Shown piece by piece: positions 50,757 to 54,752 of a stretch of DNA of 64,000 nt. The position numbers and the translations under genes are program-made. Under the pieces are notes generated by a model. That model made no database searches. It had not been told where the DNA came from and worked only from the letters and a program-made list of their open reading frames with translations. Each line of letters opens with the position of its first letter. Position 1 is the stretch's first letter. Source of the DNA: Cercospora beticola (lineage: Eukaryota > Ascomycota > Dothideomycetes > Mycosphaerellales > Mycosphaerellaceae); contig NC_088936.1 in NCBI RefSeq assembly GCF_033473495.1, forward strand, positions 744,001-808,000. Direction: 5' to 3'.

Positions 50757-53700
50757 TTATTTTAGTCTAAAGATACTTATAGCGCCGGAGGACTATCTAA
50801 TTACTAGCGATTTCTCGTATACTACTAAGTAGCTTCCCCGATACTCGTAGGGCAGCTATAATATATCTATACTCTAGTTATATATCTACTAGTCTCTAAG
50901 CTCTAAGAAGAATATTCGTATAGATATACTTATAGGCATAATTAAGCTACGATATAGAATATAGAACTCTCTAGTACTAGTCCGTAGGTAGTTGCCCTCT
51001 TTAGAGAAAGTATTAGAGAACCGAACTATAAGACGAACGTTAGAAATAAGGTAAATTATCTAGCCTATCGCCGCCTTCTATACTCGTACTATCTTATCGT
51101 ATAATACCGACGCGATAACCTACCTATCCGGCGAGAACGATACTATAGTAATATAGTAGTCGTACTCTTCGAGCTTCTACGTCTACTTGCCTATCGCTAC
51201 GTTCTATACCTATACTATCTTATTATATAATACCGACGCGATAACCTGCCCGTCCGGCGAGAACGCTACTACGGTAACCTAATTGTCGTACCTTTTAAGC
51301 TTCTACGTCTGCTCGCCTATCGCTATATTCTATAGTCGTACTATCTAGTTACTTAATACCGACGCGATAACCTGCCTATCTAGCGAGAACGCTACTATAC
51401 TAACCTCTCCGTCGTGCTCTTCGAGCTACTACGTCTACTCGCCTATCGCTACGTTCTATACCTATACTATCTAGTCCCGAGATACCGATACGATAACCTG
51501 CCTATCCGGCGAGAACGATACTACGCCGATCTCTCTATCGTGCCCTTCGAGCTTCTATATCTACTCGCCCGTCGCTACGTTCTATACCCGTACTATATTA
51601 TTACGAGATGCCGACGCGATAGCCTGCCTGTCCGGCGAGAACGCTACTACGCTAACCTCTCTATTATGCCCTTCGAGCTACTACGTCTGCTCGCCCGTCG
51701 CCGCGTTCTATACCTATACCGTCTTATCTAAAGATACCGACGCAATAACCTGCCTGTCCGGCGAGAACGCTACTACGGTAATATAGTATTCGTACCCTTC
51801 GAGCTTCTACGTCTGCTCGCCTGTCGCCGCGTTCTATACCCGTACCGTCTAGTCTAAAGATACCGATACGATAACCTGCCCGTCCGGCGAGAACGCTACC
51901 GTAGTAACCTAATTGTCGTGCCCTTTAAGCTTCTGCGTCTGCTCGCCCGTCGCCGTGTTCTATACTCGTACTATATTGTTACAAGATGCCGACGCGATAG
52001 CCTGCCCGTCCGGCGAGAACGCTACTACGGTAATATAGTAGTCGTGTCCTTCGAGCTTCTACGTCTGCTCGCCCGTCGCCGCGTTCTATACCCGTACCGT
52101 CTTGTCTAAAGATGCCGACGCGATGGCCTGCCCGTTCGGCGAGAACGCTACCGCGCTAATATAGTCGTCGTGCCCTTCGAGCTTCTGTACTTCTGCGCTC
52201 CAATTTGCTAGAACCTGCGGAAAGCGCGCCTATCCCTAAGGTATCTATTAAGAGAAGGCTTTTCTAACGAGACTCTACGTAGGAGTAAACACTAATGCGG
52301 AATAGTAAAGCTATAAGGGAGCAAGGTCGATTATATAGCGGTTCCGTAGCACGAATCGTTTCGTATCTAGCAGAAAGCTAGTAACGTTATAGCTGTCGCT
52401 ACTAACAATCGACAGCAAGTCGCTAATATAACCGATCGCGCTCGAAATCCTGCTAAGCTAGCTTAGGGCTTCGAGCTAGTATAAGAAGTGTATCCGTAGA
52501 AACGTATATACCTCGCTACGATCGTCTAACTGCGATCCGCTTTTAATAATATGTAGATGCTAATATCTGTAAGCATACGCGACGTCGGGGGGAATATATG
52601 TTCGAATCTACTCCGGAGACAGTTCGAAGCGCTTAGTTCCAGCCTATACGACACGATAGATATCGCTTCGTAAGATGCCATCTGCCGTTAGGCGTCGAAT
52701 GCAACATTGCGCGAGCTTTATATAACTGTCGATCTTATCGATCTAAAACCTTTCCCGATCTAGGCGTTACTAGTCTATTAGAAAGTTACGAAACGACAAA
52801 TAGAGTAGCTTAACCGGATCGTGCAGATTAGATAGGACCTCGAAAACAGAATATAGGTGCCGAAGGAGGTTACAAATCTCTTCTTCGATATCCTATAGCT
52901 AAATACGGAGTAGAGCTACAAGCGACGTTATAGAGAGAGGATCTACTATAAGCATAATCGGTCCTATAATCCTTCGGAAGTCTTCGATTAGTTTATCCTA
53001 TTTATATAAGGTCTTATTATCGAGCAGATAGTTCAGAATAGGCAGGTATGTTTTAGCTAGGTATAAAGCTACGCTAGCATAGCGTTGCGCTAGAATCGAC
53101 TAGAGACGCGTTCGTAGTTTTCTCTCCGATACGAATCGGTATACCGTCGAGGCAAAGATAAAGAGAGGGACGGCTAGTTCGACGAGCGCTTGCAGGTTAG
53201 CTTCGCTAGGCCACTTTTCTACTTATATGGCGCCCCCTCTTTCCTCTCTAATTTTGGCGAATATAGCGTCAAAATATATACGGAGATCGCGATAAATAGT
53301 ATCTACTTAGACCTCTTCTAGAATAATATCGTAATAGAGACTTCCGTCGAGCGCTCGGAAACCTAGCTAGACAGGAAGCTCCGGCCTACTCGTAAGAAAG
53401 ACGCGTAGTCGCAGGTTGCTCTTAGCCTCTAGTTAAGCGAGCAGCCGGAGGAAGAGTTAGATATCCGTGCTCCGGTCGCACTCGTCGAGAGCATCGATTA
53501 TAATTACGAGTCTCTGCCTTAGTAGAGACGCCGAGTGCACGCCTAGCACCGGCTATATAAGTAGCTTCTTAAACTATTCTTATAGGCCTCTGCTATAGAT
53601 AAAGGAGTCGTAATTAAGCATAGCTAGTATAGGTCTACGTATAGTAGGAATCTAGTCTATAAGTTATATAGCAATCGTAGTAAAGAAGAGGTTAGCGTTG

Positions 53701-54752
53701 CTACGGTCCTGTTTACCTCGCTTAAAGAAGAAACTTGCTCCTAAGCACGGCTTCCGGCTAAGTATTGCCGATCGATTTAGTCTCTATATAACCGTGCGAC
53801 TAATAGTCGACTTGCTAGTACTAGCCTTACTATAGAGCTAGAAGATGAATTTGCCGTCGGATGCCTCTGCCTACTATTAAATACTGCCTAGTATTTCTAA
53901 CCGCGTACCTTTAAGGCAGGTCGATATCGTCTCTTCTGCTATCGAGTTAAAGATTGCATTGCGAGCTATAGAGAGCTTTAAGAGATCTACCTTCCCCGCG
54001 GCTCTATTTTGCTGAACGTTAATCGCTGCGAGAAAACGCCGCTCGGCTATACTACGGCCTACGCTATAGTCCACGACGATATTAAGGTCCAGGATACTAA
54101 GTATAGTATAGTATATATCCTCGGGAAGAGTAGTCGTTCTGCCGTCTATCTATCTACGCTTCTCGTATAAGTCTACGCGACAGCTCGCCTTATAGTTATA
54201 TAGGATGTCTTCTAGGATACCTATCGTTTGTGCAATCCGGCCTTCGAGCGTAGGCCCGATAGGTGTCCCGCGATATCTAACGGCCGCGGCACCCTTGTTC
54301 CTAATAACCTCCTAATGCTTCGTAAGGAAGACTACCGTTCGTAGTACGAGCAGTTCCTACAAGGTCCAGCCTCGCGTGAACTATACACTCTGCCGAAACG
54401 TATTATAATTATCGACAGACTCGATATCGCTCAGATAGGCTAGACAAAGCTCCGCATCGCGATACTATCTAAACATCGAATTGATAGAAAATAACAACTC
54501 TATAGCGTTCTTCTTATTAATGCAGCAGGTATCGATCTAGAGCTATCTGATCTAAGGCACTTTGCTCTTAATATACTCCGCAAAACCTTGCGCCTTCCTA
54601 TAGCCAGCCGAGTCTATGTTCCGTCCGCTTTCTACATCTTCTAGCGTCACTTCGGAGTTATACTACCGGTGCGACGCGATCGCGTAAGGCGGCGGTTTGT
54701 TCGGTTCATCGAATTGGCGCAATTTAAGGGTGTCTATATAGAGCAGTCGCAT
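50757..54752 (-). pseudogene. HET-NACHT-WD40 NOD-like receptor (HNWD type), RIP-inactivated
   Basis: From ATG at 54,752 one frame of exactly 1,332 codons reaches TAA at 50,757 with no indel, broken by more than 40 in-frame TAG/TAA. The HET domain spans about residues 1-240: MRLL start, YAIASHR, IDTCCIN at 73-79, then MFR, YRDAELCLAYLSD, FTRGWTL, LPEDI. NACHT follows: KFIF, a P-loop reading KASTSKST at about 307-314 (GxxGxGKS with two Gly changed to Ser), GASFFFKRG, Walker B LVIIIDALDEC at 415-425, FLTSRPE. A helical arm has LSFRNFLID, FLRIHFLY and DLAPL. Nine WD40 units of LEGH...VAFSPDGQAIASAS type run from residue 857, then a C-terminal ILxLPYEYRG...VVYEKSL...SGAISI segment. Podospora het-d, het-e and het-r have this architecture and trigger heterokaryon incompatibility. 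It is dead as read. Confidence 0.9.
51060..52190. repeat. Nine WD40 units, 126-bp tandem repeat
   Basis: The marker CCGGCGAGAA or a variant starts at 51,131, 51,254, 51,380, 51,506, 51,632, 51,758, 51,884, 52,010 and 52,136, giving a 126-bp period (42 codons) with one 123-bp interval. On the minus strand each unit codes FSPDGQAIASAS...VRV.N.ATGEQTQKLEGHD. Units are highly similar, with replacements concentrated just after the GHD and ASAS positions. Near-identical repeats of this size are the typical substrate of concerted evolution and RIP in HNWD genes. Confidence 0.92.

What the first reader, a model, noticed from the sequence alone, without database searches (positions are those of the whole stretch)
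50757..54752. Complete HET-NACHT-WD40 (HNWD) receptor hidden under RIP stop codons
ORF calling sees only fragments here, yet one frame of 1,332 codons carries an N-terminal HET domain, a NACHT with readable P-loop and Walker B, a helical arm, nine WD40 units and a conserved C-terminal segment, with zero indels. This is the architecture of the Podospora het-d/het-e/het-r incompatibility genes. The indel-free state implies inactivation by point mutation only and fairly recently, so the ancestral receptor is close to readable.
Basis: partly seen in the sequence, partly recalled or inferred. Interest (0 to 1): 0.9.

Follow-up and report, generated by a model that had tools for sequence, protein, structure and literature searches.

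The report
RIP-killed HET-NACHT-WD40 self-recognition receptor relic
This is the mutated remains of a fungal self/non-self recognition receptor, switched off by the fungus's own anti-repeat mutation system, in which the pattern of its variable recognition sites can still be read.

Summary
Confirmed. One minus-strand frame, 50757-54752, is a complete HET-NACHT-WD40 (HNWD) gene with 78 internal stops and no frameshift against intact Mycosphaerellaceae orthologues (about 70% identity outside stops, codons 1-859). At columns invariant among three of them, 97 of 120 changes fit C>T/G>A only (random-change control 18%; reverse 6), and 38 of 42 stops fall where an orthologue has Trp or Gln. That is RIP. 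The genome is probably a Cercospora.

New here: (1) a second, RIP-saturated copy with nine aligned repeats lies on another contig, with a 5' fragment elsewhere. (2) Transversions, which RIP cannot make, concentrate at the four repeat codons matching Podospora's positively selected sites, within each copy and between them: the sensors had diverged before RIP. (3) Unlike Podospora's RIPped NWD pseudogenes, whose WD arrays are spared, this array is heavily hit. (4) Both full copies lie between inverted ~0.6-kb repeats shared with the 5' end of a pogo-like transposon, and detectable homology between them stops there. Transposon carriage is suggested, not proven.

The relic is a new member of a known kind; recency is not established.

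The parts
50757..54752 (-). RIP-inactivated HNWD gene: 1,332 codons, 78 internal stops, no frameshift
54003..54752 (-). HET domain (residues 1-250)
   Evidence: Pfam HET 68-112, E 0.0011, below cut-off; the three orthologues align from residue 1
53385..53852 (-). NACHT-type NTPase (NPHP3_N profile, residues 301-456)
   Evidence: E 7.7e-20
52185..53384 (-). helical arm and linker (residues 457-856)
   Evidence: collinear with P0002-P0004; no Pfam family in the 441-857 piece; mostly helical in the model of P0003
51051..52184 (-). nine WD40 units of 126 bp in register
50757..51050 (-). conserved C-terminal segment (residues 1235-1331) and terminal stop
   Evidence: residues 1227-1331: 58 of 99 non-stop residues identical to P0003, no gap; strands at the C-terminus of the P0003 model
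54753..55505 (-). upstream block shared by the C2, C10 and C5 copies (in C10 as two separate blastn matches)
49960..50576 (+). R1: repeat homologous to the 5' end of the pogo-like element, outer end at 49960; inner end approximate
57275..57943 (-). R2: inverted partner of R1, contiguous with the transposase relic, outer end at 57943; inner end set from the C10/C5 junctions
55544..57187 (-). pogo-like (DDE_1) transposase relic, 10 internal stops; 55733-57187 is 51% identical to the intact copy on C3
57999..59820 (+). dispersed repeat X bordering R2 (other copies on C5, C8, C6, C2); right end not determined

Best explanation
The locus is a dead HNWD gene: a fungal NLR with HET effector, NACHT-type switch and highly repetitive WD40 sensor. 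Shown: architecture, homology to intact Mycosphaerellaceae genes, RIP-type mutation spectrum, a second diverged copy with nine aligned repeats, and transversion hot spots at recognition-surface codons. Inferred from Podospora HET-D/HET-E: the living receptor bound a polymorphic self protein with its propeller, oligomerised through NACHT and killed fusion cells through HET. Inferred sequence of events: the gene was duplicated (C2, C10, part on C5), the copies diverged at sensor codons, and RIP then hit them because they were still alike enough. C10 and C5 reached saturation; the window copy stayed intermediate, with RIP grading in from the left. It should make no full-length protein today.
For: Masked profiles in order; intact homologues at 64-67%; 38 of 42 stops in codons 1-859 at W/Q columns of at least one of three orthologues, and 97 of 120 changes at invariant columns C>T/G>A only, against 18% for random single changes and 6 of 120 for the reverse direction; at three-way invariant columns Phe 29 of 29 and Tyr 14 of 14 kept, but Trp 3 of 16, Gln 6 of 22, His 5 of 14. 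RIP indices: gene TA/AT 1.64, (CA+TG)/(AC+GT) 0.39; four un-RIPped NLR/HET loci of the same genome 0.48-0.78 and 1.20-1.33. Second copy at C10:106113-110113. Transversions at motif-derived columns 8, 10, 26, 28: 136 of 282 within the window copy, 30 of 56 between copies, 82 of 192 within C10; only 5, 7 and 190 of 111,930 four-column sets do as well. The five best PDB matches by E-value of the intact orthologue's model are Apaf-1 structures, though with TM-scores of only about 0.3 over the whole chain.
Against: HET and NACHT profiles are each under their curated cut-off when stops are masked. 23 of 120 changes at invariant columns are not C>T/G>A only. The upstream block and R2 are duplicated yet scarcely RIPped in the window (0.95 and 1.05), so duplication alone does not explain where RIP fell. 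No functional allele, expression or incompatibility data for this species. Linker transversions between copies (0.095 per site) are twice those of HET or NACHT (0.041, 0.039) and unexplained.
Confidence: 0.94

Rival explanations
1. How the copies arose, version 1: HNWD was cargo of a pogo-like DNA transposon with long inverted ends (R1 and R2); copying by that element made the duplicates that RIP then destroyed.
For: R1 and R2 are inverted and flank the gene in both full copies (C2, C10), R2 also beside the C5 fragment. C2/C10 homology is at shuffle level outside both R ends (scores 28 and 26 against shuffled means 30 and 29) but strong inside (445, 706). R is contiguous with transposase-coding DNA at the window and at C5:3447.5k (DNA; transposase residues 29-83, E 0.001). 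About 40 bp lie between the transposase stop (55544) and the shared HNWD upstream block (55505), and no 10-base inverted match to R2's outer end was found in 55300-56000. Three of the four best-scoring loci of this transposase family, the window included, lie beside a tandem-repeat gene of the kind found in fungal NLRs: WD40 here, TPR on C3 and C5.
Against: R also occurs away from HNWD. The window's R2 and transposase are far less RIPped than HNWD and R1. C2 and C5 share sequence beyond R2, so C5 is not an independent boundary. TA next to the ends could belong to the repeat. A distant relative on C6 (27% identical, 10 stops) has 48-bp ends and no such gene apparent in 10 kb. No NB domain was shown for the TPR genes on C3 and C5; Pfam found no family in three frames at C5. 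Nine of 13 transposase loci were not examined for neighbours.
Confidence: 0.22
2. How the copies arose, version 2: segmental duplication, with transposons nested in later; RIP in the window copy is mostly leakage from saturated neighbours.
For: RIP grades in: (CA+TG)/(AC+GT) about 0.1 near 51 kb, 0.45-0.5 over 52.3-54.4 kb, mostly about 1.0 (0.5-1.2) over 54.4-58.4 kb, 0.1-0.3 from 58.6 kb to 60.5 kb. C2 and C5 share sequence beyond R2.
Against: Detectable C2/C10 homology stops at both R ends; the 52.3-54.4 kb stretch is a plateau rather than a steady decay.
Confidence: 0.55
3. The gene is alive and stops are read through or recoded.
For: Whole frame kept without frameshift.
Against: 78 internal stops, no TGA among them, directional mutation spectrum, damaged conserved positions.
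Confidence: 0.01
4. Unrelated gene fragments abut by chance and imitate an HNWD gene.
For: HET profile alone is weak.
Against: Collinear alignment to single intact proteins and a second collinear copy.
Confidence: 0.01

Closest known systems
Podospora anserina HNWD genes (het-d, het-e, het-r)
   Same: HET-NACHT-WD40 order, 42-codon repeats in a highly conserved array, diversity at the corresponding four codons, extra C-terminal segment (PMC1805685 and PMC12222747, passages read; that het-r belongs here is recalled)
   Different: Nine repeats here (active het-d/het-e alleles usually 11); gene is dead; Mycosphaerellaceae lineage; recognised partner unknown
NWDp1 and NWDp2, RIP-inactivated Podospora pseudogenes (Paoletti 2007, PMC1805685, section 6 read)
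   Same: NLR gene pair of one family inactivated by RIP
   Different: There the WD arrays are spared (CA/TA 3.28 and 3.24; one stop and none); here the WD/C-terminal part has CA/TA 0.02 and TG/TA 0.16, and 31 of 79 stops lie in the array. No HET values are given there for those two
DOTSEDRAFT_75646 (Dothistroma septosporum, P0002) and CKM354_001126300 (Cercospora kikuchii, P0003)
   Same: Closest intact homologues found, 67% identity over residues 1-855; P0003 shares the whole C-terminal segment, P0002 its first 60 residues
   Different: Two and three FS[PL]D-bearing repeats in the predicted proteins against nine here
Histone H3 captured by a hAT transposon and RIPped in Pseudocercospora, Cercospora and Sphaerulina (PMC6710886, abstract read)
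   Same: Host gene multiplied and inactivated by RIP in the same family of fungi
   Different: Housekeeping gene and hAT element; here an NLR and, if carriage is right, a pogo-like element
Starship carrying a sesA-NACHT-WD40 NLR (PMC12134995, passages read)
   Same: A NACHT-WD40 NLR inside a transposon
   Different: Giant tyrosine-recombinase element with a sesA, not a HET, domain; not DDE/pogo

Membership tests
HNWD gene family | N-terminal HET domain | tested here: met
   HET profile E 0.0011 at 19.8 bits, below the 22.5 cut-off with stops masked; intact homologues align from residue 1, P0003 and P0004 listed with PF06985 (P0002's list was cut off)
HNWD gene family | NACHT-type NTPase | tested here: met
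   NPHP3_N 72-76 bits over cut-off 24.8; the NACHT profile itself only 14.1 of 26.7 bits
HNWD gene family | C-terminal array of highly conserved 42-codon WD40 repeats (over 80% alike in Podospora) | tested here: met
   Nine in-register copies (one search lists 8 overlapping 300-nt windows, 68-81% to the reference); setting aside 575 RIP-context differences of 1005 leaves 430 over 36 pairs x 126 sites, about 9.5% (the RIP-context rule is generous)
HNWD gene family | Diversity at four codons (Podospora 7, 9, 25, 27) | tested here: met
   Mapped by motif to columns 8, 10, 26, 28; 5, 7 and 190 of 111,930 four-column sets as extreme. Selection (dN/dS) itself not tested
HNWD gene family | Divergent C-terminal repeats after the array | tested here: inconclusive
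   Conserved segment modelled as strands in the intact orthologue, with a poorly predicted stretch at 1002-1024; number of blades not settled; the relic was not modelled
HNWD gene family | Controls heterokaryon incompatibility | not testable with these tools
   Genetic property; gene is inactive
RIP target | C>T/G>A at CpA, depleted CpA/TpG, excess TpA | tested here: met
RIP target | Duplicate over about 80% identical at the time of RIP | tested here: inconclusive
   Second copy exists; transversions 0.04-0.10 per site are compatible with an earlier identity over 80%, which cannot be measured
Cargo-bearing DNA transposon | Inverted ends bounding the same unit at unrelated sites | tested here: met
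   C2 and C10 only
Cargo-bearing DNA transposon | Target-site duplication and empty site | tested here: inconclusive
   TA at the outer end in seven of nine aligned R rows (two rows do not reach it), but TA is abundant and may be part of the repeat; no convincing empty site among the C8, C6 and C2 X copies

The most novel reading that the evidence does not exclude
A pogo-like DDE transposon family of Cercospora carries NLR-type receptor genes as cargo: an HNWD gene here and, if their unproven NB domains are real, TPR-type NLR genes at two other loci. Its copying spreads recognition receptors, whose sensor codons then diverge, until RIP destroys them.
Probability: 0.15. Interest if true: 0.75.

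Novelty: new member of a known kind. Interest (0 to 1): 0.45.

Why it matters
Because RIP makes only transitions, transversions give a RIP-proof record: even two dead copies still show where a recognition receptor had been diversifying. That could turn RIP graveyards into an archive of extinct recognition repertoires and make the conflict between genome defence and repeat-built receptors measurable. Here the WD array, spared in the Podospora pseudogenes, is heavily hit. If the transposon reading holds, it would give a route by which such receptors multiply.

Tried and rejected
Intact close paralogue in the same genome: none among the 39 matches listed; the best match without stops is 32% over residues 1-467 (35 of 123 candidates were scored). 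Starship origin: DUF3435 matches are common in this genome (46) and one fragment lies in the window; whether any bounds the HNWD unit was not tested. Empty site in X copies: the window's left flank against C8 scored 41 (shuffled maximum 40 of 20), against C2 42 (43) and against C6 38 (45), so nothing convincing. First blastn settings were too loose in AT-rich DNA and were replaced. R as a solo long terminal repeat: dropped, since R runs into transposase-coding DNA at two loci. and protein 8 used a window transposase frame that is one base off (29 stops; the right frame has 10 internal stops); they are superseded. Genome islands at 11-15 kb and 24-26 kb, six frames each: no Pfam family. Strand imbalance in the WD array (coding CpA 33, TpG 2): not used, because the baseline of an intact array is unknown. 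Paper searches for a DNA transposon carrying fungal NLRs (15 of 43 listed, 15 of 15, 3 of 3, 8 of 142) showed the Starship case cited above and no pogo-type carrier; apart from the papers named as read, this was judged from listings.
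Full report
What is there. The minus-strand frame 50757-54752 holds 1,332 codons with 79 stops, 69 TAG, 10 TAA and no TGA. All six frames hold many stops (79, 101, 93, 64, 64, 108), so the frame is known by homology, not by openness. With stops masked, Pfam finds HET at residues 68-112 (E 0.0011, under its cut-off), NPHP3_N at 301-456 (E 7.7e-20) and WD40 from 855 on (E 2e-56). The P-loop is altered while Walker B reads cleanly.

Orthologues. A search with residues 1-855 gave 887 proteins under the threshold among the 8000 scored, the best 120 listed; the best are Dothistroma septosporum DOTSEDRAFT_75646 (67%), Cercospora kikuchii CKM354_001126300 (67%) and C. 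berteroae CBER1_11683 (64%). Over codons 1-859, identity outside stops is 70-71% and all gaps are whole codons; the one-codon gap to P0002 and P0003 is absent against P0004, and the six-codon gap to P0003 and P0004 is absent against P0002. P0004 has four further gaps in residues 302-351, where its own sequence departs. The last 105 residues align to P0003 with no gap, 58 of 99 non-stop residues identical; P0002 and P0004 match only up to residue 1287. A housekeeping protein of this genome is 95% identical to a cluster named for C. zeae-maydis, so the genome is most likely a Cercospora; the species is not settled.

RIP. Over 578 columns invariant among three orthologues, 120 differ in the relic; 97 are reachable by C>T/G>A alone, 6 by the reverse alone, and random single changes would give 18%. 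Of 42 stops in codons 1-859, 38 fall where at least one orthologue has Trp or Gln. The gene's (CA+TG)/(AC+GT) is 0.39 against 1.20-1.33 in four un-RIPped loci of the same genome.

Copies. A second copy at C10:106113-110113 is collinear, aligns over nine repeats, is RIP-saturated (CpA/TpA 0.00-0.01) and has 3 and 2 extra bases relative to the window copy. The 3-base one lies close to the codon that P0002 and P0003 have and the window and P0004 lack. A 317-bp 5' fragment lies at C5:3509891-3510207. More distant RIPped HET pieces occur, for example C2:2428632-2429327. No intact close paralogue was listed.

A RIP-proof reading of the sensor. RIP makes only transitions, so I counted transversions. 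The four Podospora codons under positive selection (7, 9, 25, 27; Paoletti 2007, passages read) flank the conserved codons 8 and 26. By the WD40 motif these correspond to my columns 8, 10, 26, 28, flanking the conserved V9 and D27. Within the window copy 136 of 282 transversion differences fall there; between the two copies, repeat by repeat, 30 of 56; within C10, 82 of 192. Of 111,930 possible sets of four columns only 5, 7 and 190 do as well. Pairs of repeats are not independent, so these are ranks, not p-values. Column 7 is also variable (36 within the window copy, 8 between copies). The copies therefore differed at recognition codons before RIP froze them. This is the strongest evidence that the gene had been a working, diversifying receptor; no selection test was run.

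Where RIP fell. The window copy is an island: the index is about 0.1 near 51 kb, rises through the WD array to 0.4, is 0.45-0.5 over 52.3-54.4 kb, mostly about 1.0 over 54.4-58.4 kb (with a dip to 0.53 at 56.8-57.2 kb), and 0.1-0.3 from 58.6 to 60.5 kb. CpA/TpA is 0.02 in the WD and C-terminal part (TpG/TpA 0.16), 0.23 in HET-NACHT, 0.53 upstream and 0.94 in R2; 31 of 79 stops are in the WD array. In Podospora NWDp1 and NWDp2 the WD arrays are spared (CA/TA 3.28 and 3.24). The cause of the difference, whether tandem-array targeting, leakage from the saturated left flank, or lack of living donors for repeat exchange, is open. A survey of Sordariales found only weak relations between RIP-affected area and NLR number (PMC12258605, passages read).

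Flanks. Repeat R1 (from 49960) and its inverted partner R2 (to 57943) bracket the gene; the same bracket occurs around the C10 copy, and R2 with the shared upstream block beside the C5 fragment. Outside the R ends C2 and C10 have no detectable homology under a RIP-tolerant alignment (28 and 26 against shuffled means 30 and 29), while the R pairs score 445 and 706. C2 and C5 do share sequence beyond R2, the dispersed repeat X. R is contiguous with pogo-like transposase DNA at the window (relic 55544-57187, 10 internal stops, 51% identical to an intact 550-aa copy on C3) and at C5:3447.5k, where transposase residues 29-83 match at E 0.001. The fetched C10 and C5:3505-3515k stretches gave no transposase match even at E 10.

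Other transposase loci. The intact C3 copy sits in an un-RIPped 4.1-kb spacer between inverted RIP-saturated arms with TPR arrays (TPR_10, E 2.8e-20). The C5:4644k relic lies beside a 126-bp array that matches kinesin-light-chain TPRs in the PDB (E 1.3e-13), although Pfam gave no family there in three frames and the genome-wide TPR_10 search did not list it. An NB-ARC-like motif near it was seen by eye only; no NB domain was shown at C3. The fourth-best locus (C6:471k) is a pogo element with 48-bp ends, 27% identical with 10 stops, in gene-rich DNA with no such repeat gene apparent in 10 kb (no profile search there). So 3 of 4 examined loci, the window included, adjoin WD40 or TPR repeat genes; nine further weak loci were not examined. 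This is suggestive and post hoc.

How it would have worked. The intact orthologue P0003 was modelled (mean pLDDT 81.4, pTM 0.59): an alpha/beta N-terminal domain, NTPase, helical arm, blades, and further strands in the C-terminal segment. Its five best PDB matches are Apaf-1 structures, at TM-scores of about 0.3, in line with a switch that oligomerises on sensing. HET-driven death of fusion cells is inferred from Podospora. Nothing here tests it.

Verdict. Observation confirmed and main interpretation supported. 'Recent' is unproven. A new member of a known kind, with a useful RIP-proof readout and an open question about transposon carriage.

Noticed in passing
window 21215-21328: Relic of a TPR_10-type repeat gene on the + strand, 4 TAG stops; possibly a second NLR relic in the same window.
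   Followed up: partly
window 26965-27387: RIPped fragment of a DUF3435 protein; that this is the Starship captain/Crypton family is recalled.
   Followed up: no
window 27861-28185: Tandem array of a 108-bp unit, three copies, 93% matches.
   Followed up: no
L034/L045/L046 (C3:1002031-1012019): Large palindrome: inverted RIP-saturated arms with TPR arrays around an un-RIPped 4.1-kb spacer with an intact pogo-like transposase.
   Followed up: partly
L033 (C5:4643112-4645746): RIPped transposase of the same family beside a 126-bp TPR-like array.
   Followed up: partly
L047 (C6:471226-473060): Pogo-type element with 48-bp inverted ends, 97.9% alike, transposase with 10 stops, in gene-rich un-RIPped DNA.
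   Followed up: partly
window 51051-52184: WD array keeps 33 coding-strand CpA but only 2 TpG, while HET, NACHT and linker are nearer balance; strand-biased RIP or codon content, not resolved.
   Followed up: partly
window 52185-53384: Transversions between the two HNWD copies peak in the linker (0.095 per site) above HET and NACHT; unexplained.
   Followed up: no
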